From: Chryseobacterium taiwanense
Lineage (GTDB): Bacteria; Bacteroidota; Bacteroidia; Flavobacteriales; Weeksellaceae
DNA: 64,000 bases
Assembly: GCF_000813825.1 (NCBI RefSeq)
Contig: NZ_JWTA01000004.1
Location: 124,001-188,000 of the forward strand
Direction: 5' to 3'
The notes beneath the pieces are model-generated. The model did not search any database, had not been told where the DNA came from, and saw only the letters and a list, made by a program, of their open reading frames with translations. Shown piece after piece: positions 28,183 to 43,177 of this stretch (position 1 is its first letter; each line of letters begins with the position of its first letter). A program made the translations under genes and the position numbers.

Positions 28183-29280
28183 TTAAAAATGTTGGAAATT
28201 TTTCCCTAAATGCTCTTCTATCACAAAGAACGGGTCTTCTGTCAAAGTATGCGCTCTCATGTCAATAAGACTCACTTTACTCATCATACGAAGCATAATT
28301 CTTCTTTCGCATTCATTTTCTATCCCGTCTACATTTCTCACCCCGGCTTTAAAAGCAGATCTTCCGTGAGCGCATAAATGATTGTTAACCAATATCACAT
28401 CTCCCGCTTGTGGAGTAAATCCTGAATAAATGAGATGTCGCGCCTCTTCCCAAAATTCTTTCAGATGATAATGAGCCTCCTCAGTTTGTTTAATACTTGG
28501 ATTAAATAACTGTTCTGCTGCATCAAATCTCATAAATGGAAGCTGATGATTTCCATATAAAACCGAATCTAATGTGTCTGCCTCATCAAGTTCATTCTCT
28601 AAATTGGCATCCTTAGGAATTTTATAGATACGATCAAAAAGAGCTCTGTAATTTTCTCCAATGGATTCGTGAGAACGGATAGAATAAAGAGTTGAAGGAA
28701 CCTGTTCTTCATTTCTAATGTACATAAAACTTAAAAAGTCTGCCTGATGTTTCAGGAATGCATCTTCCGTATGCACATAAAGATCCGTCGAAGAGCCCGA
28801 TCCAGTCTGTGTTTCTCTCATTTTTTCGTCAGGAATGATCGCATGGATCAGTCCTCCTCCTTTACGCTGCGAATAATACTGTACAGGTTTCGAAGGAAGC
28901 GCCCCATGAATCAGTGCACACGCAAAACCGTATAAACTGAACTTTGAATAATCTGCTGACTGCCAGTTAGGAGGCGTTGTTCCGATACTTTCCTGATCAA
29001 TATCCATTAACCCTTTAAAAATTAAGGCTCCATATTGATTCTTAGAAAAATCACTGGAAAAATCGGCAGCTATATTTAATATTCTCTCGGGCAAAAAATA
29101 AGAAGCTAGCTGATGAATCTGCTTTATAAATTCACGGTTTTCATAGTTCTCATATTTTTTCTGAAGATGTTTTGCTGCGTCTTTGATCATTTTTCGTTCC
29201 TCTGAAGTCAGTTCAATCACTGTTGGAAGCACTTTTACTTGAGAAATTGGGTCTTTTTTTAAAATTTCTGTAGAATTCAT
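28183..29280 (-). CDS. Fe(II)/2-oxoglutarate dioxygenase, probable amino-acid (lysine) hydroxylase
   Basis: Cytosolic non-heme iron oxygenase of 365 residues in the TauD/clavaminate-synthase-like fold. The metal ligands are His170 and Glu172 (HTE) and distal His305 in CAHGRSAF, with Arg residues near 326-331 for 2-oxoglutarate. The HxE form is typical of arginine/lysine hydroxylases such as VioC and the KDO lysine hydroxylases, some of which come from Flavobacterium and act at lysine C4. It is divergent from the siderophore operon, with a shared 215-bp promoter region. Lysine C4 hydroxylation followed by decarboxylation would give 3-hydroxycadaverine. The family is clear; substrate is inferred. 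Confidence 0.8.
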   Translation of the reverse strand: MNSTEILKKDPISQVKVLPTVIELTSEERKMIKDAAKHLQKKYENYENREFIKQIHQLASYFLPERILNIAADFSSDFSKNQYGALIFKGLMDIDQESIGTTPPNWQSADYSKFSLYGFACALIHGALPSKPVQYYSQRKGGGLIHAIIPDEKMRETQTGSGSSTDLYVHTEDAFLKHQADFLSFMYIRNEEQVPSTLYSIRSHESIGENYRALFDRIYKIPKDANLENELDEADTLDSVLYGNHQLPFMRFDAAEQLFNPSIKQTEEAHYHLKEFWEEARHLIYSGFTPQAGDVILVNNHLCAHGRSAFKAGVRNVDGIENECERRIMLRMMSKVSLIDMRAHTLTEDPFFVIEEHLGKNFQHF

Positions 29281-29311
29281 AAAAAAAAATTTGGTGTTAG
29301 CTAATAATTAA

Positions 29312-29368
29312 TATATTTGTTTTTAATTATTCTAAATAACAATAGCGAGTTCAAATTTAGAAATAATT
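29312..29368. promoter_or_regulatory. Divergent promoter with Fur-like inverted half-sites
   Basis: AATTATTCTAAAT (29325-29337) and ATTTAGAAATAATT (29355-29368) are near-perfect complements. Perfect -7 boxes flank or overlap them: TATATTTG on plus (29312-29319) and TAAATTTG on minus (29352-29359). ATTCTAAAT/ATTTAGAAT words resemble Fur sites in low-GC genomes. The site lies between the dioxygenase and siderophore genes, where iron control is expected. Binding by Fur is inference. Confidence 0.4.
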
Positions 29369-29451
29369 TATAAACTACCAAATAAAAAATACAAAAAAAT
29401 GAAAACTTAAAAAACTGATAACCAGAAAATTAATTTAAATAATACAAAATA

Positions 29452-29464
29452 ATAGACCGTCTAT
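29452..29464 (+). promoter_or_regulatory. 13-bp palindrome before the siderophore operon
   Basis: ATAGACCGTCTAT is palindromic around its central base and sits 31 bp before the decarboxylase start at 29496. Its form suits a TetR-type operator. No regulator gene is encoded in the locus, so the binding protein is unknown. Confidence 0.4.
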
Positions 29465-29495
29465 CTATTTACAAAATCACTTTATAAAAACGTAT

Positions 29496-31022
29496 ATGAA
29501 TAACAATTTAATATCCTCAGAGGAGCTCTCAAACGCAGTTTTACCTCACAATTTGGGGAATTTTGAGAATATTTTTCATTCTGCCAATTCTGAGCATTAT
29601 CGAAATGCGATCAATACCACTACAGATCTTGTTCAGGAATTTCTTTCTAGAAATAAAAAACCGTTCAGCGGTATAGAAGCAAAAGAAATGAAAGAAAAGG
29701 TACAACAGATTGACCTTGATCAAAAACTTTCAACGTATGATGAACTTCTTGCTGAAGTAGATGATATTTATGTAAAACACGCTACAGCTTTTCACCTTCC
29801 TCAATATGTAGCGCATCTTAACTGTCCTATAGTTATTCCGGCTTTGGCAGGAGAAATCTTGGTAAGTGCCATCAATTCGTCACAAGATACCTATGATCAA
29901 AGTGCAGGAGGAACTTTTATGGAAAGAAAACTTATTGACTGGACGGCGAAACAGATTGGTTATGATGTGAATGACAGTGACGGAGTTTTTACAGCCGGAG
30001 GTTCACAAAGTAATCTCATGGGACTTGTAATGATGCGTGACTGTTTTTCTCAGAAAAGATACAATCACAATATAAAAATGGATGGTTTATCGCCGGAAGC
30101 AGGTCGTTTCAGAATATTTGTTTCGGATAAGTCTCATTTCAGTAATCTGAAAAATGCCTCTATCATGGGATTGGGTGAAAAATCGATCATTAAAGTTCCT
30201 ACAGATGACCGTTTCCGTATGGATATTTCTTTATTGAAGAAATACATAAAAAGAGAAGAACAGCTGGGAAATATTCCTATCGGAATTGTTGCGACAGCAG
30301 GAACCACAGATTTCGGAAATGTTGATCCTTTGGAAGATATCGCCGATATTGCCGAACAATACAATATCTGGATGCATGTAGATGCCGCATACGGATGTGC
30401 CTTACTGCTAAGTGAAAAATACCGTGATCTTTTGAACGGAATTGAAAGGGCAGATTCTGTAACGATTGATTACCATAAATCATTTTTCCAGCCTATCAGC
30501 AGCAGTGCTTTTATCGTAAAAAACAAAAGAGAACTGCTTATTCTTAAACATCACGCCGATTACCTGAATCCGAAAGAGATGGATGAAGAGGAAATTCCTG
30601 CTCAAATTAATAAATCCATCACTCAGAGTACCCGTCGATTTGATGCCTTGAAATTATGGTTCACGTTAAGAATGATGGGAAAAGAGCAATTAGCTGAATA
30701 TACCGACACCGTTATTGATCTTACAAAAGATACGGCTTCAATGATCTCTGAAGATCCTGATTTTGAAATCCTTTCTGATTCAGATCTGAGTGTACTCGTT
30801 TTCAGATATATCAGATCAGATATTGAAGATACGAATGCTTTGAACCTTTTTATTAAGATGAAACTGTTTTACAGCGGAGAAATCTTGGTGGCAAGTACTA
30901 AGGTGAACGGAAACTTCTATTTAAAGTTTACTCTGTTAAATCCTATTACAACCACAGAAGACATTCATCAAATTCTCACTACAATCAAAAAACATGGAAA
31001 AGACTTTAATACAGAAAAGTAA
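29496..31022 (+). CDS. PLP-dependent decarboxylase of the siderophore cluster (lysine-type)
   Basis: Group II (aromatic/basic amino-acid) decarboxylase of 508 residues. PLP-binding Asp296 lies in HVDAAYG and the Schiff-base Lys328 in DYHKSFFQP. The substrate-side motif SAGGTFMERKLIDW is at about 136-150. In hydroxamate siderophore pathways this family (DesA-like, diaminobutyrate or lysine decarboxylases) makes the diamine building block. Here it would convert lysine or 4-hydroxylysine to cadaverine or 3-hydroxycadaverine. It overlaps the next gene by 29 bp, so it heads a tightly coupled operon. Substrate is inferred from context. Confidence 0.85.
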   Translation: MNNNLISSEELSNAVLPHNLGNFENIFHSANSEHYRNAINTTTDLVQEFLSRNKKPFSGIEAKEMKEKVQQIDLDQKLSTYDELLAEVDDIYVKHATAFHLPQYVAHLNCPIVIPALAGEILVSAINSSQDTYDQSAGGTFMERKLIDWTAKQIGYDVNDSDGVFTAGGSQSNLMGLVMMRDCFSQKRYNHNIKMDGLSPEAGRFRIFVSDKSHFSNLKNASIMGLGEKSIIKVPTDDRFRMDISLLKKYIKREEQLGNIPIGIVATAGTTDFGNVDPLEDIADIAEQYNIWMHVDAAYGCALLLSEKYRDLLNGIERADSVTIDYHKSFFQPISSSAFIVKNKRELLILKHHADYLNPKEMDEEEIPAQINKSITQSTRRFDALKLWFTLRMMGKEQLAEYTDTVIDLTKDTASMISEDPDFEILSDSDLSVLVFRYIRSDIEDTNALNLFIKMKLFYSGEILVASTKVNGNFYLKFTLLNPITTTEDIHQILTTIKKHGKDFNTEK

Positions 31023-33399
31023 AACTGGAGAAAGCGCCAAAAAAATAACGGCTCGAGTAGTACTCAACGGAATGTTGAGAGAACTGGGAAACGGAAAATT
31101 TTATCAGGGAGTTCCGAAGCATGATCTGTTGACGGCACAGGCTCTTGAAAAAAGCAAGTATCCGCTTCACATGAGATTTGAGATGAAGAAAAACGGAATA
31201 TTTTTATTCGCTCCCATTTCGTATCGATCGAAAACAACCTTCCATGAATATGGTTTTCCCATTTGGGCAGTAGATCATAACAACAACGAAATCTTTGAAG
31301 TTCATTTGGAAGAATTAATCGAAATGATCTACATAGAATTCTGCGATACTTTTACGGAAGAAGGACTGGATCGTTTTACCCAAAGAATTAAAAGCAGTGT
31401 CAGGAATCTTCAAATAACCTCAGAAGCAATTTCTGAGAGACAACACCCCATCAGTTATTCATTTTTGGAGTCAGAGCAGATTCTTCCTGCAGGACATAAT
31501 CTACATCCTTTCACCAAATCAAGAATGGGATTTTCTGAAGAAGAGCAAAAACTGTATGCCCCTGAATTTGAGAATGGGTTTCAGCTGGATTATTTCCTGA
31601 TTCATAAAGACTGTATCTCTGAACAATCTCTTTCTGGAATATCTGCAAAAGAGATTTTTGCCACACTGGCATCCGTTCCCGAAGAATATTATTTTGACAA
31701 TATTGCGGATTACTATATTGTTCCGTGCCATCCCTGGGAAGCAAAATACTTAATGTCAACAGAAGAATATCCTGAAATCATAGGATCCGGACTAGTCATT
31801 CACATCGGTAAACTGGGCGAAGAGTTTTATGCTACCTCATCGATCAGGACACTTTACAGCCCGCAATTCAACTGGATGCTAAAGTTTTCTTTACATGTTT
31901 TGATGACCGGATCTGTAAGAACCAACAGTTTAAAGGATCTCAGAAGAGGATATGCTTCTTCCGCCTGGTGGAATGACAGAAAAACGTTATTTGAAAAGAC
32001 TTTTCCAGACTTCAAACTGCTTTCAGAACCTTCTACCATAAGTGTTTTCTTTAAAAAAGAAAATATTGACAGCTTTAATATTTTAGTCCGTGAAAATCCT
32101 TTTTCATCTCAGGACAAAGTGCTTTTACTGGCGAGATTATGTCAGGACGAGTCTACAGATCATAATTTTACTACAGATTTCTTTAAAAACCTTGCTGAAA
32201 CCTTACAGACATCACCGGAACAGGCAATTCTAACTTGGTTTAAAAGATATTCGCAACTGCTGCTTCCTCCTTTAAATACTTTATTTAAAGAATTTGGAAT
32301 GGCTCCCGAAGTCCATCAGCAGAATCTTCTTATCCAGCTTAATGACGAACTGCTTCCTCAAACTATTTATGTGAGAGACGGACAGGGATATCTTTTGAAG
32401 GAAAGCTACAAAGAAAAATACAAAAAAGCGATAGAAGAATGTCCTGAGATTGAAGATCTTTTCATTAGAGATGAGCGTCTTTTGGATATTATTTCCCATC
32501 ATTTACTGGTAAGCAATTTTGCAGCTTTGATCTCTTCATTAGGCAAAACAGGATTAATTGAAGAGCAAAAACTCATCCATATTCTTTATGACGAATTCAG
32601 CAGTCTTCATCAGTCAGAACCGTCAGATCTTACAGATTACGCTTTACACCAAAGGTATTGGGCGGTGAAATCAAATCTTCAGTCTGCCATTCTTGATGTA
32701 GACGGAGGCATTAATGCTTCTTCTATTTCTTATGCTAAAGTTCCCAATCTTCTTCACAGGTATTTCTTTTCACAACAATTGATTCATCCTCAGGGAAAGG
32801 AAGTTTTCTTTAAACGGTATTTTCCTAAAGAAGACGTCACCATCAGCATGAGACCTATCGATCTGGAAAATGATCTGGAAATGCTTCATGAATGGTTTAA
32901 CAGGGAACACGCCGTAAAAATATGGCAGATGAACTGGCCGATCGATGAGCTCGAAACCTATTACAGACTGATGCTCCCAAGCGACGAAGCACATAGCTAC
33001 ATTATTGCAAGTAACGATGAACCCAGCTGTAATATTGAAGTGTATTGGGCGTGTAGAGATATCGTTGGAGATTATTATGAGGTTTTACCTACAGATTACG
33101 GAACCCATCAGTTCATTGCTCCGACCGATCCGAAGAAAAAATACGTATCCCCTTCTACCCAATCTATGGTTGATTATGTATTTGCACAGCCGGAAGTTGG
33201 AAAAATGGTTGGTGAAGGATCTGTTGATTCTCTTGCTTCGATGATGAATAAAGCACATGTAGGCTTCAAAGTAGATAAAGTCATTGAAATGCCTCATAAA
33301 AAAGCCAATCTTAATTTCTGCTACAGAGAATGGTACTGGGAAAAGTTTCCACAAAATAAAAATATACAAATCACCACAAACATCATAAAAAATGAATAA
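30994..33399 (+). CDS. NIS siderophore synthetase (IucA/IucC) fused to a GNAT acyltransferase
   Basis: An 801-residue fusion. Residues 1 to about 590 are an NRPS-independent siderophore synthetase with GHNLHPFTKSRMGF, VPCHPWE, SSIRTLYSP and the EVHQQN motif, enzymes that adenylate citrate or another carboxylate and join it to an amine or hydroxylamine. From about 614 to 790 follows an IucB-like GNAT domain (SMRPIDLENDLEMLHEWFN; EVYWACRDIVGDYYE; VGEGSVDSLASMMNKAHVGF read in parts). This domain would acylate the N-hydroxy-diamine. Separate genes are usual; here both steps are on one chain. It overlaps the next gene by 8 bp. Confidence 0.9.
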   Translation: MEKTLIQKSKTGESAKKITARVVLNGMLRELGNGKFYQGVPKHDLLTAQALEKSKYPLHMRFEMKKNGIFLFAPISYRSKTTFHEYGFPIWAVDHNNNEIFEVHLEELIEMIYIEFCDTFTEEGLDRFTQRIKSSVRNLQITSEAISERQHPISYSFLESEQILPAGHNLHPFTKSRMGFSEEEQKLYAPEFENGFQLDYFLIHKDCISEQSLSGISAKEIFATLASVPEEYYFDNIADYYIVPCHPWEAKYLMSTEEYPEIIGSGLVIHIGKLGEEFYATSSIRTLYSPQFNWMLKFSLHVLMTGSVRTNSLKDLRRGYASSAWWNDRKTLFEKTFPDFKLLSEPSTISVFFKKENIDSFNILVRENPFSSQDKVLLLARLCQDESTDHNFTTDFFKNLAETLQTSPEQAILTWFKRYSQLLLPPLNTLFKEFGMAPEVHQQNLLIQLNDELLPQTIYVRDGQGYLLKESYKEKYKKAIEECPEIEDLFIRDERLLDIISHHLLVSNFAALISSLGKTGLIEEQKLIHILYDEFSSLHQSEPSDLTDYALHQRYWAVKSNLQSAILDVDGGINASSISYAKVPNLLHRYFFSQQLIHPQGKEVFFKRYFPKEDVTISMRPIDLENDLEMLHEWFNREHAVKIWQMNWPIDELETYYRLMLPSDEAHSYIIASNDEPSCNIEVYWACRDIVGDYYEVLPTDYGTHQFIAPTDPKKKYVSPSTQSMVDYVFAQPEVGKMVGEGSVDSLASMMNKAHVGFKVDKVIEMPHKKANLNFCYREWYWEKFPQNKNIQITTNIIKNE

Positions 33400-34708
33400 T
33401 GAACCCATTTATAATGTCATTGGCATTGGAATAGGACCATTTAATCTGGGATTGGCAGCTTTATCCCACCCCATCCCGGAATTGAAAACGCTGTTTCTTG
33501 ATCAGAGAGACGGTTTTGACTGGCATCCCGGATTGATGATCGATCATGTGACTTTACAGACTCCGTTTTTATGCGACTGTGTCTCCATGGCAGATCCTAC
33601 CAATCCTTTAAGTTTACTGAATTACCTTAAAATAACGGGAAGGCTTTATCAGTTCTTCATCCGTGAGAATTTCTTTGTCCCGAGAAAAGAATACAACCGC
33701 TATTGCCAATGGGTAATTGAGCAGCTTCCACAATGCCGGTTTTCAACTCAGGTTGTAGATATTCATTATGAAGACGGTCTTTATCATGTCTCTACGGTTA
33801 ATACTCAAACCAAGGAAAAAACAGTTTTCAGGACGGAACGTTTGGTGTTAGGAACCGGAACGCAGCCTCATATTCCTTCTTTTATTCCTAAAGATGATCA
33901 GCGTATACTGCATACCAGCAGCTATCTTTACCGTAAGGAAGAGCTTCTTTCAAAAGGAAGTAAAATAGCCGTAATCGGTTCAGGGCAAAGTGCGGCTGAA
34001 GTTTTTTATGACCTTCTTCAGAGCAGAGATATAAAAACAGAATTAGGTTGGTATTCGCGACCGGACAGGTTTTTCCCTATGGAATATTCTAAACTAACCT
34101 TAGAACTGACCTCTCCAGATTATGTTGAGTATTTTTATAACAGAAACCCTGAGGCAAAGAAAACCATCTTAAGCAAACAGCAGAGCCAGTTTAAAGGAAT
34201 CAATTATGATCTGATCAATGATATTTATGATTTCATTTACGATCTTACTATTGATAATGCCGATCCGAATCTTAAAATTATTCCAAACAGTCAGCTCAAT
34301 ACCGTTGATAACAGCAGAGACAACCTCATCAATCTTGAATTTACCCAGTTAGAGCAGGAAATCCCTTACGAACAGGAAGCCGATTATCTGATTCTGGGAA
34401 CCGGGTACCGTTACCATGAACCCGCATTTTTAGAAAACATTCAGGACAGAATTAAAAGAGATGCAAATGGTTTGTTTGATGTAAACAGAAATTATTCTAT
34501 CGATCATAATGGTGGAGAAATCTATGTGCTTCATGCAGAAGTTCATACCCATAGTTACATTTCAACCGATCTTGGAATGGCTGCTTACAGGAACTCCTCT
34601 ATCATTAATGATATTCTGGGAAGAGAGCATTATCATATCGAGAAAAAAATTGCTTTCCAGGATTTTGATGTAGAAAAATATGCTCAGATATCAACCGCCC
34701 AAATTTAA
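33392..34708 (+). CDS. Flavin N-monooxygenase (SidA/IucD/PvdA family)
   Basis: FAD/NADPH enzyme of 438 residues that N-hydroxylates primary amines (lysine, ornithine or diamines). The FAD motif GIGIGPFNLG is at 11-20, a NADPH motif VIGSGQSAAEVF near 194-205, and a C-terminal LGTGYRYHEP equivalent to the LATGY motif. In this cluster the natural substrate is most likely cadaverine or 3-hydroxycadaverine, since a decarboxylase is first in the operon (inference). It is flanked on both sides by synthetase genes (8-bp overlap before, 8-bp gap after). Confidence 0.9.
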   Translation: MNNEPIYNVIGIGIGPFNLGLAALSHPIPELKTLFLDQRDGFDWHPGLMIDHVTLQTPFLCDCVSMADPTNPLSLLNYLKITGRLYQFFIRENFFVPRKEYNRYCQWVIEQLPQCRFSTQVVDIHYEDGLYHVSTVNTQTKEKTVFRTERLVLGTGTQPHIPSFIPKDDQRILHTSSYLYRKEELLSKGSKIAVIGSGQSAAEVFYDLLQSRDIKTELGWYSRPDRFFPMEYSKLTLELTSPDYVEYFYNRNPEAKKTILSKQQSQFKGINYDLINDIYDFIYDLTIDNADPNLKIIPNSQLNTVDNSRDNLINLEFTQLEQEIPYEQEADYLILGTGYRYHEPAFLENIQDRIKRDANGLFDVNRNYSIDHNGGEIYVLHAEVHTHSYISTDLGMAAYRNSSIINDILGREHYHIEKKIAFQDFDVEKYAQISTAQI

Positions 34709-34716
34709 CAGAAACA

Positions 34717-36525
34717 ATGAACACCAAGTTAAGAAACACCATAAGCCAGGAAAACTGGCACCAAGCCAACAGAAACTTAATGGCAAAAACGATTGCAGAA
34801 CTCATGCATGAAGAACTTTTGAAACCTATTTTTTCTTTCGAGGATGAAGCAGGATATTCCGTCTTTACCATCGAAACAGGTTTTGAAAATATTATATACA
34901 GCTTCAGAGGACAGGAAAGGATGATGGATTACTGGCATATTGATAAAAACAGTATCACAAAAACAGAAAACGGAGAAAAAATTTCTTTGATCGATGTAGC
35001 GAACTTCTTCAGAGAAATGCATCCTGTTTTTGATCTAGATCCGAATACGTTGGCTAAATATACGGAAGAACTGCTTCATACTTTGTATTGCGATGCTTTG
35101 ATCCTGTCAAAAGGAATCATTTCTTCAAAAGATTTGGCAATGGCGGATTACCAGACTGTGGAACACAATATGACAGGACATCCGTGGGTCATTGTTAACA
35201 AAAGCAGACTTGGGTTTTCCCCTCGTGATTTTAAGACATTTGCTCCTGAAGCAGAAGAAAACCTGCATATTATCTGGCTGGCTTCACACCGCAGCAGATC
35301 AACCTTCCAGTCATTGGAATATATTGAAAGAGAAGCATTCTACCGTTCAGAAATCGGAGATGATTTATATGAAAACTTTACACAAAAGCTTGCTGATGAA
35401 GGAAAAATTGCTGACGATTATCTTTTTATTCCTGTTCATCCGTGGCAATGGGAGCATAAGCTTCAGGTTCATTTTGCCGGAGATATCGCGACCGGACTTT
35501 TAATTAATCTGGGGGAAGGAAAAGATGTATACAGTCCACAACAAAGCATCCGTACACTGTTCAATGTAGATCATCCTGAAAAAAGATATCTGAAAACTGC
35601 GGTTTCTATTCTGAGTACAGGAAACATCCGAGGACTTTCTCCCAAACAGATGAAAATAGCCCCTTCTATCACGGAATGGGTAAAAAGCCTGATCAAAGAT
35701 GATGTTTATTTAGAAAACAAAGGAACTATATTTTTAGGGGAAGAAGCTTCAATTACATACTTACATCCGCAATATTCATCAATAGAACAAGTACCTTATC
35801 AGTATAATGAGTTTCTTGGGGCTTTATGGCGTGAAAGTGCTGAAAATTATCTTCAAGAGGATGAACAAATGGTAACGATGGCATCACTCCTTTATGTAGA
35901 TGATCACGGGATTCCTTTAGTACAGGCTTTTGCTGAAAAATCAGGAATGAGTATTAAAGAATGGCTGAAAAGCTATCTTGACGCTTATCTTACGCCTCTG
36001 CTCCACATTTATTACACTCATTCACTGTGTGTAACTCCACATGGAGAAAACATCATGGTGGTTTTAAAGAATGGTGTTCCGCAGAGGATTGTCATCAAAG
36101 ATTTTGTAGATGATATTGTGCTTACCAAAGAAGCCAGAGAAAAACTTCCGCCGCATCTTGCAGACGGACTTATCCAGTCTTCCAATAAAGAAAACATTCC
36201 TCTTTTTATTTTATTAGGCGTTTTTGATGCCTTCTTCAGGTATCTTTCAAATATTCTACATACGTATTCAAACTTTAAAGAACAAACCTTCTGGTCGCTT
36301 GTTCATGACTGTGTGGAACATTATAAAACAGAAAATACTCATCTACAGGAACGTTATGAAAAATATGATTTGTATGTGCCTACATTCAAAAGGTTTTACA
36401 TCAACAGTCTGCGTCTGAAAAATAACGGATACAGCGAAAATAAAGCATTCGCAATTCCAAGGAAAGACGGAGCACTGCCTAATCCTCTGTATGAGATTGC
36501 CAATAAAAATTCGGTATCTGTATGA
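34717..36525 (+). CDS. NIS siderophore synthetase (IucA/IucC family), stand-alone
   Basis: Second NIS synthetase, 602 residues. Motifs: TGHPWVIVNKSRLGFSPRD (the HPxxKSRxGF ATP-site segment), PVHPWQWEHKL, SPQQSIRTL, and HGENIMVVL with the C-terminal FVDDI. The full set of family motifs is intact. With the fused synthetase it would make two successive citrate-amide bonds, giving a symmetrical or mixed citrate siderophore. Its stop overlaps the next start by ATGA. The order in which the two act cannot be read from the sequence. Confidence 0.9.
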   Translation: MNTKLRNTISQENWHQANRNLMAKTIAELMHEELLKPIFSFEDEAGYSVFTIETGFENIIYSFRGQERMMDYWHIDKNSITKTENGEKISLIDVANFFREMHPVFDLDPNTLAKYTEELLHTLYCDALILSKGIISSKDLAMADYQTVEHNMTGHPWVIVNKSRLGFSPRDFKTFAPEAEENLHIIWLASHRSRSTFQSLEYIEREAFYRSEIGDDLYENFTQKLADEGKIADDYLFIPVHPWQWEHKLQVHFAGDIATGLLINLGEGKDVYSPQQSIRTLFNVDHPEKRYLKTAVSILSTGNIRGLSPKQMKIAPSITEWVKSLIKDDVYLENKGTIFLGEEASITYLHPQYSSIEQVPYQYNEFLGALWRESAENYLQEDEQMVTMASLLYVDDHGIPLVQAFAEKSGMSIKEWLKSYLDAYLTPLLHIYYTHSLCVTPHGENIMVVLKNGVPQRIVIKDFVDDIVLTKEAREKLPPHLADGLIQSSNKENIPLFILLGVFDAFFRYLSNILHTYSNFKEQTFWSLVHDCVEHYKTENTHLQERYEKYDLYVPTFKRFYINSLRLKNNGYSENKAFAIPRKDGALPNPLYEIANKNSVSV

Positions 36526-37928
36526 TGAGGAAACTCCTTACGCTCATAAAAGAAGGATCGGTTTTTACCTATAGAGCCTTAGCCGGAAAAAAAACCGAGC
36601 TGACCTCCGGAAGTATTAACCGTTCCATCTTTAGCCTGGCAATTCCTATGGTGATGGAATTGGTGATGGAATCCGTCTTCGTGAGCGTCAATCTTTTGAT
36701 CATTGCCAAATTGGGTGATAAAGTTCTTGGTCTTGTCGGGATTACGGACAACTATATCAATTTTGCTTATGCCATTGCGGTGGGTATCGGGATTGCTGCT
36801 GCAACATTAACTGCAAGAAGAGCCGGTGAAAAAGATTACGAAGGAATGGGAAGAACAGCGCAGTATATTATTTTGCTGGCTTTGTTTTTTGCTGTTTTAA
36901 TTGGCGGACTTTCCTGTCTATTCTCCTCTGAAATTGTAAGTTTTCTGGGAGTAAACAGTCATGGCGTCAATGACGGATTGCAGTTTTCAAGGTTGGTTTT
37001 TCTCAGCATAGGACTAATTATCGTTCGCCTTTCTGTCAATGGACTGTTTCGGGGAGCAGGTGATGCCGATATTGCCATGAAATCTCTCTGGATCTGCCAT
37101 ATTTCCAACATCATTTTTGCGATTATCCTTGTTTTCGGATTAGGAGTTATCCCCGCTTTCGGACTGATGGGATTGGCTTATGCAACTGTACTGTCGAGAT
37201 TTTTAGGCGTTTTGTATCAGATATACATCTTCTTTTCCGGGAAGACTAGTATCCGTATTATGACTCCTTTTCAATGGGATTTTCCATTGTTGAAAAAGAT
37301 CCTGAAAATTGCCTTTGGAGGACTTGTTCAGTATATCATTCCCACCTCAAGCTGGCTGATTATGGTGAAAATCATTGCCACTTTCGGAACAACAGCTCTT
37401 GCAGGATACATTATCGCCCAGCGTATTGCTTCAGTAGCAACAATGCCTGCCTGGGGAATAGGAAACGCAGCCGGAGTGCTTACAGGGCAGAATCTAGGAG
37501 CCGGCAATTCGGAACGCGCTGAAAAAACGGTATGGAGAGCCGGAACCATCAATATGACCTATTTGGTTGCCGTAGCTTTATTCTGGCAAATCGCGGCTGA
37601 ATATGTTGTCAAGCTATTCACTACAGAAGCAGAAGTTGCGAGATATGCTGTACAGTATATTCATGTTGTTTCTATGGCTTATTTACTGTTAGGATTTACC
37701 ATGGTCATAAGCCGTGCGCTGAATGCAGCCGGAAATATTATGCAGGTTACGCTGCTTTACATCATTATGTTTTATGTCATTCAGCTTCCTATGGCGTATC
37801 TCTTAGGAGTGCGGCTGCAATGGGAACTGAAAGGAATATTTGCCGCTATTGTTTCTTCTGAAATCGTACTGGCTGTATTATTCCTGATGATTTTTAAAAA
37901 TGGAAAATGGAAAACTATAAAAATTTAA
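36522..37928 (+). CDS. MATE-family exporter, probable siderophore efflux
   Basis: Twelve-helix multidrug/toxin-extrusion transporter of 468 residues, with the family segments SLAIPMVMELVMES near the start, LFRGAGDADIAMKSL, and GAGNSERAEKTVWRAG in the second half. Starting inside the stop of the synthetase gene (ATGATG at 36522), it is translationally coupled to siderophore assembly, so export of the finished siderophore is the likely job. The frame from 36522 uses either of two adjacent ATGs. Confidence 0.88.
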   Translation: MMRKLLTLIKEGSVFTYRALAGKKTELTSGSINRSIFSLAIPMVMELVMESVFVSVNLLIIAKLGDKVLGLVGITDNYINFAYAIAVGIGIAAATLTARRAGEKDYEGMGRTAQYIILLALFFAVLIGGLSCLFSSEIVSFLGVNSHGVNDGLQFSRLVFLSIGLIIVRLSVNGLFRGAGDADIAMKSLWICHISNIIFAIILVFGLGVIPAFGLMGLAYATVLSRFLGVLYQIYIFFSGKTSIRIMTPFQWDFPLLKKILKIAFGGLVQYIIPTSSWLIMVKIIATFGTTALAGYIIAQRIASVATMPAWGIGNAAGVLTGQNLGAGNSERAEKTVWRAGTINMTYLVAVALFWQIAAEYVVKLFTTEAEVARYAVQYIHVVSMAYLLLGFTMVISRALNAAGNIMQVTLLYIIMFYVIQLPMAYLLGVRLQWELKGIFAAIVSSEIVLAVLFLMIFKNGKWKTIKI

Positions 37929-37929
37929 A

Positions 37930-38175
37930 ATGAACACTACAGACGAATTTTATGAAATTATTGCTGCTGCCATCGCAGTAAAAAAAGAACTGGTGAATGA
38001 AGACCTCACTTATCAGGAAATCCCGGAGTGGGATTCTATGTCTCATCTTCTTATCGTAGAAGCTCTTGAACAATACTATCAGGTAAAGTTTGACTTTAAC
38101 GATATCATGGAAATGGGCACCGTGGGAAAAATCCGTGAGAAAATGAAAAAATACGAAGTATTCGTAGAAAACTAA
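37930..38175 (+). CDS. Acyl carrier protein of the siderophore cluster
   Basis: An 81-residue acidic, helical protein with the phosphopantetheine site EWDSMSHL; Ser36 is the attachment residue. Its length and layout fit a stand-alone acyl carrier protein. It starts one base after the MATE stop region and ends just before an adenylate-forming ligase gene, so the two are a loading pair. Most NIS clusters have no carrier protein. Here it would present an activated acyl group, perhaps to the GNAT domain (inference). Confidence 0.88.
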   Translation: MNTTDEFYEIIAAAIAVKKELVNEDLTYQEIPEWDSMSHLLIVEALEQYYQVKFDFNDIMEMGTVGKIREKMKKYEVFVEN

Positions 38176-38179
38176 TTTT

Positions 38180-39568
38180 ATGAAAATTTTAGAAAATATA
38201 ATTGCCAATAAAAGCCTCTTATTCACAGAGGCTTCTACTGGCAAAACGATTCCGGTGGGAACACTGTACCGGTCTCTGGGATTAAACCCCGTCGAAAAAG
38301 GGTTGTTATTTCTATATAATGATAATCAGCTTCCGGGTATTGAGGTGCTTCTTAATTTTTATGGAACAGCACATACCATTGCTTTGCTCGGGCAAAAACT
38401 GCATACAGATTTCAAAGACCGTCTTGAAGCAGAATATCGTCCCAAATACATCTTTGATCCTCAAAGAAATGAAATTCTCGGCTACAGCCTGAAAGAGTTT
38501 TCAGAGACGATCAGCATCTTTATGAAGGATGATTATAAGCATGAAGTGACTATTAATCCCGAAATCAAGATCCTTCTGAGTACTTCAGGAACAACAGGAA
38601 ATCCCAAATTGGTAAAACTCTCGGATGAAAGTCTTTATCAGAATGCTTTGAGTATTCTTCAGTATATGCCTATTCTGGACTCTGATGTGGTGGCTTTAAA
38701 TGTTCCGATTAACTTCGTGTACGGATTTTCCATATTTACCACCAACTGTATGCGTGCAGGAAGAATCGTATGTTCTGATAAGGATATCATGCAGAAAGCC
38801 TTTTGGGATGAAATGGATCTGTACGGATATAGTACTTTAGGAGGCGTTCCTTACCTTTATGAAAACCTCAACAGAATCGGTTTTTTCAGAAAAGACTCTC
38901 CCAGCTTACGATATTTAACTCATACCGGCGGAGTGATCAACAGTGAATTAAGAAAAATCATTTTTTCATACTGTAATGAGTACAATAAGGAATTCTTTGC
39001 CCAATACGGACAGACTGAAGCCGGAGGAAGAATGGCTTACCTTTCCACTGAAGGGCTTTTAAATGATGAAACCTCTATTGGAACTCCGGTACATGGCGGC
39101 GATTTCAGGATTGATCCTGATACCGAAGAACTACTGTTCTCCCATAAAAGTATTTTTGGAGGATATGCAAATACACTGGAAGATCTTATTTCATATAATC
39201 AACCTAGGATACTTCATACCGGAGATACGGCCAGAAAAAGTGATGATGGAATCTATTATATCACAGGAAGGATAAAACGTATTATGAAGCTTTTCGGTAT
39301 CCGCCTGAATCTGGATGAGGTTGAATTCATTCTTAAAAATGAACTGAAAGAAAATACGTTTGCCTGTCTTAATGATCGCGATAAAAAAATCATTGTTCTG
39401 TATGACAATCCGGAAATAGATCCGCAACATATTATTGACATCATAAAAAACAAACTGAGTATCAACCCACAATACATACGTACAGAATACATAGAGTCAT
39501 TTCCACTATCACAAAACGGTAAAATCAACTACCCCTTACTACAAAACTTACAGCATGAAAATATTTAA
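38180..39568 (+). CDS. Adenylate-forming acyl-ACP ligase of the siderophore cluster
   Basis: AMP-dependent synthetase of 462 residues. Motifs: STSGTTGNPKLVKLS (A3 P-loop, near 133-147), YGQTEAGGRM (A5), LHTGDTARKSDDG with YYITGR (A7), RIKRIMKLFGIRLNLDEVE (A8), and SQNGKINYPLL with the catalytic Lys (A10). It lacks any fused carrier domain; the ACP directly upstream (4-bp gap) is the probable acceptor. It likely activates the carboxylic acid of the hydroxamate arm; fumarate would fit the chryseochelin structure, and a fatty acid is an alternative. It overlaps the receptor gene by 14 bp. Confidence 0.85.
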   Translation: MKILENIIANKSLLFTEASTGKTIPVGTLYRSLGLNPVEKGLLFLYNDNQLPGIEVLLNFYGTAHTIALLGQKLHTDFKDRLEAEYRPKYIFDPQRNEILGYSLKEFSETISIFMKDDYKHEVTINPEIKILLSTSGTTGNPKLVKLSDESLYQNALSILQYMPILDSDVVALNVPINFVYGFSIFTTNCMRAGRIVCSDKDIMQKAFWDEMDLYGYSTLGGVPYLYENLNRIGFFRKDSPSLRYLTHTGGVINSELRKIIFSYCNEYNKEFFAQYGQTEAGGRMAYLSTEGLLNDETSIGTPVHGGDFRIDPDTEELLFSHKSIFGGYANTLEDLISYNQPRILHTGDTARKSDDGIYYITGRIKRIMKLFGIRLNLDEVEFILKNELKENTFACLNDRDKKIIVLYDNPEIDPQHIIDIIKNKLSINPQYIRTEYIESFPLSQNGKINYPLLQNLQHENI

Positions 39569-41996
39569 AACCCCTATATTACTTTTATTTTTTATTGGTC
39601 TTCCAATGGTTGTTTCTGCCCAGCAGAGCGAACGTGTAAACGGAAAGATCATGCTCTCTGAAAAAGTGCCTGTGAAAAACGCACTTTTAAGATTAGTCAA
39701 TACACCGTATCAGGCCAAGACCAATAGTTCAGGAGAATATTACTTTGATAATGTGCCGCCGGGAGAATATACACTTCAGGTGGTTTTGAATGATATTGAG
39801 TTAATGCGTGAGCAGATTCACATTGAAAAAGATGTGTTTGAAATTCCTCCAATCTATACTTCTTCAGTAGAAAACAACGTCATTGAAGGAATTACAGTAT
39901 ATGCTTTCAGCAGAAACAAATTTTTGGATAGGGACAGTACCACCGTCGCCAAAATGCCGTTAAAAAACATTGAAAATCCCCAGTTTTACACAAGTATTAA
40001 CCAGCAGGTTCTTAAAGAGCAGCTTATTTATGATGTTTCGGATGCGGTAAAAAATGCTCCCGGTATTGTAAAAATGCAGGGAAGCGCCGGTAGAGCAGGA
40101 GATGGAAGCTTTTATTATAATTTAAGAGGGTTTCCTACCAGAATTTCTATGGTAGATGGTGTTCCTGCAACGACCAACTCAGAAATTGATCCTGCGGACA
40201 TTGAACGTATCGATGTGATTAAAGGTCCTTCCGGAACTCTGTACGGAGGTACCGTAAATTCCTTTGGAGGATTGATTAATGTGACCACCAAAAAACCGAA
40301 AGATTATTTTGGAGGTGAGGCTTCATATCTTTTGGGAAGTTATAATCTGAACCGTGTTACAGCTGATGTATACGGTCCGATCACGAATTCAAGGAAAACT
40401 TTGTTCCGTTTGAATGCCGCCTACCAGTATCAGAATGGTTTCAGAGATTCTGAGTTCAGAAAATCCATGTTTGTGGCACCTACATTCAGCTATCAGGTGA
40501 ATGACCGGTTAAAATTCAACCTTGGTGCTCAGATTTATACCTATGAAGGAACGAACACCCCGATTATCTTTTTACCGAGAACCAGACCATTTATTGCAAC
40601 AACTCCGGATCAGCTTGGATACGATTGGAAAAAATCATATTCTAATAATGATATGAGCTTAAAGGCTCCTTCTATCAACATAAAGGCTGAGGTGAATTAT
40701 AAAATTTCAGATCAGTGGAGTTCTCAGACTTTAATTTCAAGAAACTATAGAAAAACGGAAGGATTGTATCAGTACCAGTTCATGAGAGGAGCTACAGATA
40801 ACCTTTTGGAACGTAATGTACAGTGGCAGAATGGTGAAGGTGCGTCTACAAGTATTCAGCAGAACTTTAACGGAGAATTTAACATAGGAAGCATCAAAAA
40901 TAAACTGCTTGTTGGCTTAGATTATTTAAACCAGTCTTTGAATAATAACCTTTCTCCGATTGTTGTATTTGATTACATTGACCCTAGAAACCCTACTGCG
41001 CCAATAGCATCACCAGTAACGGGTACATATGGAAATATATCCAGAGATCTGGCATTGCAGAAGATTCAAAGCTCTACAGCTCCTTTGGTAAGAAATACGG
41101 CATCAAGTAATATGTATGGAGCCTATGTTTCTGATGCGGTATATATTACAGACCGTTTGGTTGCTTTGCTAAGCTTACGTTTTGACCATTATGAAAGTAA
41201 GGGGCAGCTTGACCTGAACACAAACATCAATACAGGAACATTCAACCAGAATGCATTGTCTCCTAAATTTGGTTTATCTTATCAGATCATCAAAGAACAT
41301 TTGTCTGCCTATGCCAACTATATGAATGGATTCAGTAATGTCGCTCCTGTTGCGCAGCCGCTTGCCGACTACAGCGGGGATTTCAAGCCACAGAGATCCA
41401 ATCAGTGGGAAGCAGGATTCAAAGGAAATCTTTGGAGAAACAGAGTGAATTTTACCGTAGGATATTATGATATTCTTGTGGATAATATGTTAAGAGTAGA
41501 ACCAATAACCCGTGACGGAAAGAACTACAATGTGACGATCCAGGATGGAGAACAAAGAAGCAAAGGGTTCGAAATTGAAACAACCATGAACCCGATCCAG
41601 GGGCTGAATATTATAGCAGGGTATTCTTATAACGACAGCAAATTTGTAAGAGCTGCCGCGTCTGTTGACGGTCGTCGTCCTTCATCTTCGGGGCCTGCTA
41701 ATGTTTTCAATTCATGGGTCAGTTATATTTTGCCGATTAAAGGGCTTCAGGGATTAGGTTTAGGCTTTGGGGTCAATCGTGTTGGGAAGCAGATTAGTGT
41801 AGACAATGTGACCACCGGACAGTTTATATTCCCAGCGTATACTTTGGTGAATGCTTCCGTGTCTCTTGAAAAAGAAAGATACAGAGTAGGATTTAAAATG
41901 AATAATTTAGGAAATACCCAGTATTTTGCAGGACAGGGTGTTATAGTTGCCCAGATGCCTCGTAACTTTGTTGCAGAGGTTACTCTTAAATTTTAA
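39555..41996 (+). CDS. TonB-dependent siderophore receptor
   Basis: Outer-membrane receptor of 813 residues. A signal peptide at 1-22 (cleaved after VSA) is followed by a CarboxypepD_reg-like beta domain (residues 26-90, SGEYYFDNVPPGEYTLQVV), a plug domain (YDVSDAVKNAPGIVKMQG; IDVIKGPSGTLYGG) and a 22-strand barrel ending in Phe (FVAEVTLKF). The plug motif VIKGPSGTLYG is usual for hydroxamate-type receptors. It overlaps the ligase gene by 14 bp, so uptake is co-expressed with synthesis. The ligand is most likely the siderophore made here. Confidence 0.92.
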   Translation: MKIFKTPILLLFFIGLPMVVSAQQSERVNGKIMLSEKVPVKNALLRLVNTPYQAKTNSSGEYYFDNVPPGEYTLQVVLNDIELMREQIHIEKDVFEIPPIYTSSVENNVIEGITVYAFSRNKFLDRDSTTVAKMPLKNIENPQFYTSINQQVLKEQLIYDVSDAVKNAPGIVKMQGSAGRAGDGSFYYNLRGFPTRISMVDGVPATTNSEIDPADIERIDVIKGPSGTLYGGTVNSFGGLINVTTKKPKDYFGGEASYLLGSYNLNRVTADVYGPITNSRKTLFRLNAAYQYQNGFRDSEFRKSMFVAPTFSYQVNDRLKFNLGAQIYTYEGTNTPIIFLPRTRPFIATTPDQLGYDWKKSYSNNDMSLKAPSINIKAEVNYKISDQWSSQTLISRNYRKTEGLYQYQFMRGATDNLLERNVQWQNGEGASTSIQQNFNGEFNIGSIKNKLLVGLDYLNQSLNNNLSPIVVFDYIDPRNPTAPIASPVTGTYGNISRDLALQKIQSSTAPLVRNTASSNMYGAYVSDAVYITDRLVALLSLRFDHYESKGQLDLNTNINTGTFNQNALSPKFGLSYQIIKEHLSAYANYMNGFSNVAPVAQPLADYSGDFKPQRSNQWEAGFKGNLWRNRVNFTVGYYDILVDNMLRVEPITRDGKNYNVTIQDGEQRSKGFEIETTMNPIQGLNIIAGYSYNDSKFVRAAASVDGRRPSSSGPANVFNSWVSYILPIKGLQGLGLGFGVNRVGKQISVDNVTTGQFIFPAYTLVNASVSLEKERYRVGFKMNNLGNTQYFAGQGVIVAQMPRNFVAEVTLKF

Positions 41997-41998
41997 TA

Positions 41999-43177
41999 AT
42001 GAAACTTATATTCAGAAAAATTGCTTATCAATTACATGTATGGCTCGGACTCACGTCCGGGCTTATCATTGTTATTATAGCGGCAACAGGATGTATCCTC
42101 GCTTTTGAAGATGAGCTGAAACAGTTTATACATCCTCAAAGGTATTTTGTAGAAAAAATAGAACAGAAAAAATTACCGCTTTCAGAATTGACTCTGAGAG
42201 CAGAAAAAGCACTCCCCGACAGTCTGAAAATAAAAAGGGTTCAAATCTCCTCCGATCCATCAAGAACCTATATGTTCCGTACTCTGAAAATGAATAACGA
42301 GGCCCTCTCCTTTTGGGGAACCTATATTTATTATTACAGAGTCTATGTAGATCCTTATTCAGGAAAAATTCAGGAGGTGGAAAATGCAAAAAAAGATTTC
42401 TTTGAAATTGTTCTGGATCTACACCGCAGACTTTTACTCGGAGAGAAGATAGGAAAAATGATAACGGGATATTCTACTCTTATATTTACGATCCTATTAC
42501 TTTCCGGACTGGTCATCTGGTATCCCCGAAAAATGAGCAAGGCCATGCTGAAAGGGATGTTTTTTATTAAAACCTCAGCCAACTGGAAAAGAATCAATTA
42601 TGATGTTCATAATGTACTGGGATTCTATGCTGTCATTCCGTTATTATTAATATGCTATTCCGCATTGATATGGAGCTTTGAAGATATTGATAAATGGGTA
42701 GAAAACACATTAAACGACAATAGTATCAAGGAAAAAAAAGCTGAAAGTAAAATTCCGGCCGGAGAATTCATCCATCAGAAAAATATTTTGAATCTAGTAG
42801 GTGACAAAGTACTGAAAGACCTTCATGATAAAAAATCTGCCATGATTAATTTTCCACGAACGGAAGAAGGAACTTATTATGCTGAAGTAAATTTTGACAA
42901 CAGATACTATCGGAATATTCATTATAATATTGACCAATATTCCGGTGAGGTTTTAAAATATCAGTCTTATAAAGATCATATGGGATCCGGTTCTGCATTA
43001 AGGGAGAGAAATTACGATCTGCATACAGGAAGTATTCTCGGAACTCCAACCAGACTGATTTATCTTTTGGCAGCCTTCATAGCAACTTCATTGCCTATTA
43101 CAGGTTTTATTATTTATATCAATAAAAAGAAGAAAAAACCTAAAAAGAAATCTAGAATTAAAATATCCAAAAACTAA
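41999..43177 (+). CDS. PepSY-TM membrane protein, probable ferric-siderophore reductase
   Basis: Inner-membrane protein of 392 residues with a PepSY-associated layout: TM near 12-35 (LHVWLGLTSGLIIVIIAATG), a periplasmic domain, TM near 155-175 (LHRRLLLGEKIGKMITGYST before it), a further TM near 203-225, and a last TM near 350-372 before a Lys-rich tail. His residues at helix ends (HVW, LHRRL, VHNVLG) fit heme binding, as in FoxB/FpvG-type iron-siderophore reductases. It lies 2 bp after the receptor and is last in the operon. Confidence 0.85.
   Translation: MKLIFRKIAYQLHVWLGLTSGLIIVIIAATGCILAFEDELKQFIHPQRYFVEKIEQKKLPLSELTLRAEKALPDSLKIKRVQISSDPSRTYMFRTLKMNNEALSFWGTYIYYYRVYVDPYSGKIQEVENAKKDFFEIVLDLHRRLLLGEKIGKMITGYSTLIFTILLLSGLVIWYPRKMSKAMLKGMFFIKTSANWKRINYDVHNVLGFYAVIPLLLICYSALIWSFEDIDKWVENTLNDNSIKEKKAESKIPAGEFIHQKNILNLVGDKVLKDLHDKKSAMINFPRTEEGTYYAEVNFDNRYYRNIHYNIDQYSGEVLKYQSYKDHMGSGSALRERNYDLHTGSILGTPTRLIYLLAAFIATSLPITGFIIYINKKKKKPKKKSRIKISKN

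What the first reader, a model, noticed from the sequence alone, without database searches (positions are those of the whole stretch)
37930..39568. Carrier-protein/ligase pair inside an NIS siderophore operon
Aerobactin- and desferrioxamine-type pathways take acyl groups from acyl-CoA, with no carrier protein. Here an ACP (Ser36) and an adenylate-forming ligase lie in a coupled operon with the GNAT-fused synthetase. The simplest idea is that the ligase loads an acid for which no CoA ester is normally available, such as fumarate, and that the GNAT domain takes it from the ACP. That would be an acyl-ACP-dependent hydroxamate acyltransferase. A fatty-acid-loading role is the alternative.
Basis: inference. 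Interest (0 to 1): 0.7.

Follow-up and report, generated by a model that had tools for sequence, protein, structure and literature searches.

The report
Likely fumarate loader for Chryseobacterium siderophore
A small carrier protein and its loading enzyme sit in a Chryseobacterium iron-scavenger gene cluster whose other enzymes match, piece by piece, a published fumarate-containing siderophore (chryseochelin) with no gene cluster reported in the papers I could search, so the pair most likely activates fumarate for that molecule.

Summary
In detail: an 81-aa acyl carrier protein (Ser36) and a 462-aa adenylate-forming ligase lie in a tightly coupled NIS siderophore operon of a Chryseobacterium. 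Lysine 4-hydroxylation plus the operon's decarboxylase gives 3-hydroxycadaverine. Chryseochelin A, from Chryseobacterium, is citrate plus two N-hydroxy-3-hydroxycadaverines, each capped by fumarate; its paper names no genes. Every step has an enzyme family here except fumarate activation, and the carrier/ligase pair is the only unassigned activation machinery. The block is colinear in 44 of 44 related loci. In 296 genomes the hydroxylase (17 genomes) occurs only with the ligase (18); operons without the hydroxylase mostly lack the pair. Fumarate loading is the best reading (about 0.7); fatty-acid loading (chryseochelin C) is the main rival. Carrier-dependent acylation is precedented (MbtL in mycobactin; AsbC/AsbD/AsbE in petrobactin, itself an NIS pathway), so this is a new variant of a known kind. 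No loading step is shown; the ligase structure prediction failed, so substrate choice is inferred.

The parts
28183..29280 (-). L-lysine 4-hydroxylase homolog (Fe(II)/2-oxoglutarate dioxygenase, KDO type); proposed to supply 4-hydroxylysine
   Evidence: Match to solved L-lysine 4-hydroxylase 6euo over residues 14-362, E 8e-140; iron-binding H170-x-E172...H305 identical in 48 orthologs; next to the operon in 44/44 Chryseobacterium/Elizabethkingia loci
29281..29495 (.). Divergent intergenic region with a conserved AT-rich block (TTTTTAATTATTCTAAATAACAAT), Fur-like by eye
   Evidence: Near-identical block across 45 aligned intergenic regions; regulatory role is inference
29496..31022 (+). PLP-dependent decarboxylase; proposed 4-hydroxylysine to 3-hydroxycadaverine
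   Evidence: PF00282 E 2e-67; nearest NCBIfam model RhbB, 383 bits, below its cut-off of 900
30994..33399 (+). NIS synthetase fused to C-terminal GNAT N-acyltransferase (residues about 623-766); proposed fumaryl transfer and citrate condensation
   Evidence: PF04183, PF06276, PF13523; GNAT nearest solved relatives DfoC 5o7o (E 4e-20) and, further, SidF 7qf6 and MbtK 1yk3 (E 6e-12)
33392..34708 (+). Flavin N-monooxygenase (diamine N-hydroxylation)
   Evidence: PF13434 E 7e-111
34717..36525 (+). Second NIS synthetase (citrate condensation)
   Evidence: PF04183 E 4e-76; closest NCBIfam SbnF, 271 bits, below cut-off
36522..37928 (+). MATE-family exporter
   Evidence: PF01554; TIGR00797 over cut-off
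37930..38175 (+). Acyl carrier protein, 81 aa, attachment Ser36; proposed fumaryl carrier
   Evidence: DSMSHL motif, ACP profile hits, four-helix model pLDDT 82, ortholog over Pfam PP-binding cut-off
38180..39568 (+). Adenylate-forming acyl-ACP ligase, 462 aa; proposed fumarate:ACP ligase
   Evidence: PF00501 E 4e-23; orthologs with an adjacent ACP in 49 loci
39555..41996 (+). TonB-dependent siderophore receptor
   Evidence: TIGR01783, 246 bits over cut-off 223.5
41999..43177 (+). PepSY-associated transmembrane protein, possibly a ferric-siderophore reductase
   Evidence: PF03929 E 9e-60; reductase role is inference

Best explanation
The operon together with the divergent hydroxylase gene makes a chryseochelin-type siderophore. 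Lysine is hydroxylated at C4, decarboxylated to 3-hydroxycadaverine and N-hydroxylated. The ligase adenylates fumarate and loads it as a thioester on the phosphopantetheine arm at Ser36 of the ACP. The GNAT domain of the fused synthetase moves the fumaryl group from the ACP to the hydroxylamine nitrogen, forming the fumaryl hydroxamate. The two NIS synthetases join two such arms to citrate; MATE exports and the TonB receptor imports. Shown here: the genes, their families, coupling, conservation and co-occurrence. Inferred: that the product is chryseochelin, that fumarate is the acid loaded, and that the GNAT uses the ACP thioester.
For: Lysine 4-hydroxylase homolog next door, E 8e-140, iron ligands intact. 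Chryseochelin A, from Chryseobacterium, is citrate plus two 3-hydroxycadaverines with hydroxamates to fumaric acid, C24H36N4O15. Families for every other step are present. The block from hydroxylase to PepSY is colinear in 44/44 loci. In 296 genomes of the order, ligase orthologs of at least 50% identity are in 18 genomes and the hydroxylase in 17, all among those 18; of the sampled Chryseobacterium genomes 14 have both and 15 neither. Chryseobacterium genomes with a GNAT-fused synthetase but no second NIS and no hydroxylase (L080, L081) lack ACP and ligase, and so do citrate-type two-NIS operons without the hydroxylase (L083-L085). The GNAT is the only N-acyltransferase in the operon. PPTase-domain genes exist elsewhere in the genome to activate the ACP. 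Ligase residues H248 and G283, in motifs near the acyl pocket in this superfamily (general knowledge), are invariant in 49 siderophore-clade ligases and are Q and A in all six outgroup ligases.
Against: No biochemical test. The producing strains CHR2, CHR5 and CHR6 are identified only to genus, so no genome links operon to product. G176 carries ACP and ligase without a hydroxylase match, so the tie is not absolute. The ligase model failed (pLDDT 45), so no pocket was seen. R284, the obvious candidate for binding a second carboxylate, is family-wide, not specific to this clade. The CoA pyrophosphate loop is altered in the GNAT but also in carrier-less relatives. Co-occurrence counts are not corrected for shared ancestry.
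Confidence: 0.7

Rival explanations
1. The ligase and ACP activate fatty acids. The acyl-ACP is used to acylate the free primary amine of chryseochelin B, giving the lipid-tailed chryseochelin C, while fumarate reaches the hydroxamate by another route.
For: Chryseochelin C with fatty acids up to C17, saturated, unsaturated and hydroxylated, is reported from the same strains. Mycobactin uses an ACP for its lipid N-acyl group.
Against: Nothing in the operon would then activate fumarate, the major building block. The spread of chain types suggests acyl groups taken from the general pool rather than by one selective ligase (inference). At 462 aa the ligase is shorter than typical fatty acyl-AMP ligases (general knowledge; the diagnostic insertion was not mapped).
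Confidence: 0.15
2. The pair loads another short acid, such as succinate, malate or crotonate, which is converted to fumaryl on the ACP or later, or which makes a different siderophore in this species.
For: Distant relatives of the pair sit beside a 3-ketoacyl-ACP-reductase-like SDR in glycan-type clusters; in F. psychrophilum O-antigen a carrier-delivered hydroxyacyl group is proposed.
Against: No dehydrogenase or dehydratase lies in the Chryseobacterium operon. Fumarate is an abundant free metabolite (general knowledge). The published product carries fumarate itself.
Confidence: 0.1
3. The ligase is really an acyl-CoA ligase and the ACP an accessory or passenger; the GNAT uses fumaryl-CoA.
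For: Siderophore GNATs of this family usually take acyl-CoA (general knowledge). A fumaryl-CoA route by an acyl-CoA ligase was assumed for bafilomycin.
Against: The ACP adjoins the ligase in all 49 siderophore loci and lies with it, one SDR gene between, in four glycan-type loci; three more distant ligase loci (L120, L121, L124) show no ACP of this kind beside it. Ser36 and its motif are invariant.
Confidence: 0.05

Closest known systems
Chryseochelin A (Rehm et al. 2023, PMC9989332)
   Same: Genus matches; building blocks 3-hydroxycadaverine, hydroxamate, fumarate and citrate each map to an enzyme here or to the otherwise unassigned ligase/ACP pair
   Different: The paper reports no gene cluster, carrier protein or ligase, and producing strains are identified to genus only
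Petrobactin AsbC/AsbD/AsbE and methylolanthanin mll (NIS pathways with a carrier protein)
   Same: Adenylating enzyme plus carrier protein in an operon with two NIS synthetases; carrier-bound acyl moved to a polyamine
   Different: Aryl acid donor, catecholate rather than hydroxamate, and a DUF6005-type AsbE transferase and AsbF that are absent here
Mycobactin MbtK / MbtL / MbtM
   Same: Dedicated ACP and a GNAT homologous to this one (1yk3 E 6e-12) making an N-acyl group that is part of a hydroxamate
   Different: Lipid acyl groups, NRPS pathway, fatty acyl-AMP ligase (own knowledge), GNAT not fused to an NIS synthetase
Desferrioxamine DfoC (5o7o)
   Same: GNAT fused with an NIS synthetase; closest solved GNAT (E 4e-20)
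   Different: GNAT is N-terminal; no carrier protein or ligase and acyl-CoA donor (own knowledge)
DdaG, amide-bond synthetase of dapdiamide
   Same: Adenylate-forming enzyme of an NRPS-independent pathway; activates fumarate (own knowledge)
   Different: Acts directly on an amine without a carrier protein (own knowledge)
Glycan-type ACP + SDR + ligase modules (L104, L105, L122, L123)
   Same: Nearest relatives of the pair outside siderophore operons: ligase about 29-41% and ACP 24-36% identical, two genes apart
   Different: Mostly lie among polysaccharide genes; extra SDR, and LuxE/LuxC-like genes in L104, L122 and L123; ligase positions 248 and 283 differ

Membership tests
Acyl carrier protein | DSL-type motif with attachment serine at start of helix II | tested here: met
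   DSMSHL, Ser36 invariant; helix 36-50 in the model
Acyl carrier protein | Pfam PP-binding over curated cut-off | tested here: inconclusive
   Window copy not detected; 46%-identical Flavobacterium ortholog over cut-off
Acyl carrier protein | Four-helix carrier fold | tested here: met
   Model pLDDT 82, top Foldseek hits are carrier proteins but with E above 0.1; profile hits to solved ACPs, best E 2.6e-8
ANL adenylate-forming enzymes | AMP-binding domain and core motifs including the C-terminal catalytic lysine | tested here: met
   PF00501 E 4e-23; K448 of NGK invariant
Fatty acyl-AMP ligase (FAAL) subgroup | FAAL-specific insertion | tested here: inconclusive
   Only the short length (462 aa) argues against; the insertion was not mapped and the structure model failed
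Chryseochelin biosynthesis | Enzymes for 3-hydroxycadaverine (Lys 4-hydroxylase plus decarboxylase) | tested here: met
   By homology: 6euo match E 8e-140; PF00282; activity not assayed
Chryseochelin biosynthesis | Diamine N-hydroxylase, N-acyltransferase, NIS synthetases for citrate | tested here: met
   By homology: PF13434, PF13523, two PF04183 proteins
Chryseochelin biosynthesis | Fumarate activation | not testable with these tools
   Ligase/ACP is the only candidate in the operon; substrate needs an assay
Chryseochelin biosynthesis | Operon present in a known producer strain | not testable with these tools
   CHR2, CHR5, CHR6 known only to genus level
Petrobactin-type asbABCDEF | AsbE (DUF6005) transferase and AsbF dehydratase in the operon | tested here: not met
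   No such match among the operon proteins scanned with Pfam
Mycobactin MbtK-type acyl-ACP N-acyltransferase | GNAT homologous to MbtK with a dedicated ACP and ligase nearby | tested here: met
   1yk3 E 6e-12, 9nnr E 8e-8; ACP and ligase in the same operon
Mycobactin MbtK-type acyl-ACP N-acyltransferase | Demonstrated use of acyl-ACP as donor | not testable with these tools
   Needs an enzyme assay

The most novel reading that the evidence does not exclude
A fumaryl-ACP-dependent hydroxamate acyltransferase: an NIS pathway that keeps a reactive unsaturated dicarboxylate on a private carrier protein and hands it to a GNAT domain fused to the synthetase, with the carrier/ligase pair recruited from a surface-glycan acylation module. 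The direction of recruitment and the donor are both unproven.
Probability: 0.55. Interest if true: 0.65.

Novelty: new variant of a known kind. Interest (0 to 1): 0.58.

Why it matters
Chryseochelin has a known structure with two building blocks its authors call new, and they say its biosynthesis needs further study. This locus supplies a gene-by-gene hypothesis, including a lysine 4-hydroxylase with a clear metabolic purpose and a proposed answer to how fumarate is activated. It would be, to my knowledge, a first hydroxamate NIS pathway with a carrier-bound dicarboxylate donor. It makes clean predictions: losing the ligase or ACP should remove chryseochelin A, and losing the hydroxylase should give a product 32 Da lighter. 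I could not check literature outside the open library, so the cluster may already be described elsewhere.

Tried and rejected
Ligase structure prediction with 22 close orthologs failed (pLDDT 45), so there was no pocket analysis and I did not use the model. The idea that R284 is a fumarate-specific carboxylate anchor was rejected because it is invariant in glycan-type relatives too. The idea that loss of the CoA pyrophosphate loop in the GNAT proves ACP use was rejected because carrier-less relatives and DfoC also lack it; S719 and T722, aromatic in nearly all carrier-less GNATs compared, track the carrier group, but that could be lineage. A tree of the fused synthetases could not be rooted reliably (one key support 0.53), so gain versus loss of the pair is open. 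The JBC paper on FadD33/MbtM was not held. Three of the papers citing chryseochelin, which I opened, only list it as a reference.

Full report
The sequence. The window is a Chryseobacterium: the ligase of C. tagetis (L006) is 95% identical. From 29496 to 43177 nine genes run on the + strand with gaps of -29 to +8 bp: PLP decarboxylase, IucA/IucC synthetase with C-terminal GNAT, flavin N-monooxygenase, second IucA/IucC synthetase, MATE exporter, ACP, adenylate-forming ligase, TonB siderophore receptor, PepSY protein. The finding's coordinates hold exactly the ACP and the ligase. The ACP is divergent: Pfam misses it, but its Flavobacterium ortholog passes the cut-off, a profile hits solved ACPs, and the model is a four-helix protein with Ser36 opening helix II.

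The neighbour that matters. On the opposite strand, 28183-29280, lies a protein matching the solved L-lysine 4-hydroxylase 6euo over 349 residues at E 8e-140, with H170-x-E172 and H305 invariant in 48 orthologs. 4-Hydroxylysine decarboxylated at C1 is 1,5-diaminopentan-3-ol, that is 3-hydroxycadaverine (from the chemistry). Chryseochelin A, purified from Chryseobacterium isolates, is a citrate-based dihydroxamate with 3-hydroxycadaverine and two fumaric acid appendages (PMC9989332). The paper's text has no gene cluster, carrier protein or ligase, and three citing papers that I opened only reference it. So the locus matches the molecule block by block, and the one chemical step without a family-assigned enzyme is fumarate activation. 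The ACP/ligase pair is the only unassigned activation machinery. That is an inference by elimination, not an assay.

Conservation and co-occurrence. All ten genes including the hydroxylase are present and colinear in 44 of 44 Chryseobacterium and Elizabethkingia loci (the loci were found through the ligase). In 296 genomes of the order the fused synthetase, ligase and hydroxylase were searched separately. Ligase orthologs of at least 50% identity occur in 18 genomes, the hydroxylase in 17, and every hydroxylase genome is among the 18. Of the sampled Chryseobacterium genomes 14 have both and 15 neither. The exception is G176, a genome with the operon but no hydroxylase match. Two Chryseobacterium genomes carry a GNAT-fused synthetase (37% identical) with decarboxylase, monooxygenase and another MATE but no second NIS, no hydroxylase, no ACP and no ligase; three other genomes carry two-NIS operons with free and N-terminal GNATs and likewise no ACP, ligase or hydroxylase. 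So the pair tracks the hydroxylase rather than NIS chemistry in general. These counts are not corrected for common descent.

Where the pair may come from. Outside the siderophore operons, ACP and ligase relatives (ACP 24-36%, ligase about 29-41% identical), two genes apart with an SDR between them, occur in polysaccharide clusters (L104, L105, L123) and in L122, with LuxE/LuxC-like proteins in L104, L122 and L123. In F. psychrophilum a carrier protein is proposed to deliver a hydroxyacyl group to an amino sugar of the O-antigen (PMC6519341). The same logic, a carrier-bound acyl group moved to a nitrogen, suggests recruitment, but direction is not shown. Three further ligase relatives (L120, L121, L124) have no ACP of this kind beside them.

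Specificity. Twenty-five ligase positions are invariant in 49 siderophore-clade ligases and never seen in six outgroup ligases; H248 and G283 fall in motifs that in this superfamily lie near the acyl pocket (general knowledge). R284 is family-wide. The ligase model failed. In the GNAT, 21 positions separate the carrier group from carrier-less relatives, including S719 and T722 where others have mostly aromatic residues, in the segment that contacts CoA in GNATs (general knowledge). None of this is decisive.

Mechanism proposed. Ligase plus ATP and fumarate gives fumaryl-AMP; transfer to the phosphopantetheine of Ser36; GNAT transfer to N-hydroxy-3-hydroxycadaverine; two citrate condensations. 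A plausible reason for a private carrier is that fumaryl thioesters are electrophilic and would be wasteful or harmful as free CoA esters (inference). PPTase-domain genes are present elsewhere in the genome.

Relation to the known. Petrobactin shows an NIS operon with ligase and carrier (PMC6836290), methylolanthanin likewise (PMC11317620), and mycobactin an ACP-borne acyl group for the lysine N-acyl position (PMC5302061) with a GNAT homologous to this one. Verdict: observation confirmed, interpretation partly supported, best reading fumarate at about 0.7, new variant of a known kind.

Noticed in passing
39555-41996; compare L006 and L026-L045: The TonB receptor gene seems to have a different history from the rest: L006 is 95-100% identical in the other genes up to the ligase but only 75% in the receptor, while many loci with a 65%-identical fused synthetase have an 83-92% identical receptor. 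Suggests receptor exchange by recombination.
   Followed up: no
29281-29495: The divergent intergenic region holds a block nearly identical in 45 loci (TTTTTAATTATTCTAAATAACAAT) next to TAnnTTTG-like boxes; it looks like a shared iron-regulator site for hydroxylase and operon.
   Followed up: partly
L076:6708-7340, L077:6710-7345, L078:12407-13039, L079:6784-7419: Versions of the operon in another genus (family f3) carry a nitroreductase-family gene before the decarboxylase that Chryseobacterium versions lack. It might alter the acyl or hydroxylamine group.
   Followed up: partly
L083, L084, L085: Citrate-type NIS operons with two GNATs, one fused to the N-terminus of a synthetase and one free-standing; could make asymmetrically acylated siderophores.
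   Followed up: no
L104:7982-12649, L123:7373-12077, L122:174-4915: Clusters, two of them among polysaccharide genes, with ACP, SDR, ligase, LuxE-like and LuxC-like genes in a row; an acyl-ACP activation and reduction module of unknown product.
   Followed up: partly
44089-48765 and 49139-53689: Two large tandem paralogous secreted-looking proteins with repeated fibronectin-like stretches and a shared C-terminal sorting-like domain (domain names by eye).
   Followed up: no
G000:C34:244484-250720 (about 56-63 kb beyond the window end): A 2365-aa open frame with two carrier-domain matches and a PPTase-domain match in a nearby 1412-aa frame, NRPS-like.
   Followed up: no
G176:C36 (L078, L106): A genome with the ACP/ligase operon but no lysine 4-hydroxylase match at E 1e-30; predicted to make the deoxy (plain cadaverine) fumaryl siderophore.
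   Followed up: partly
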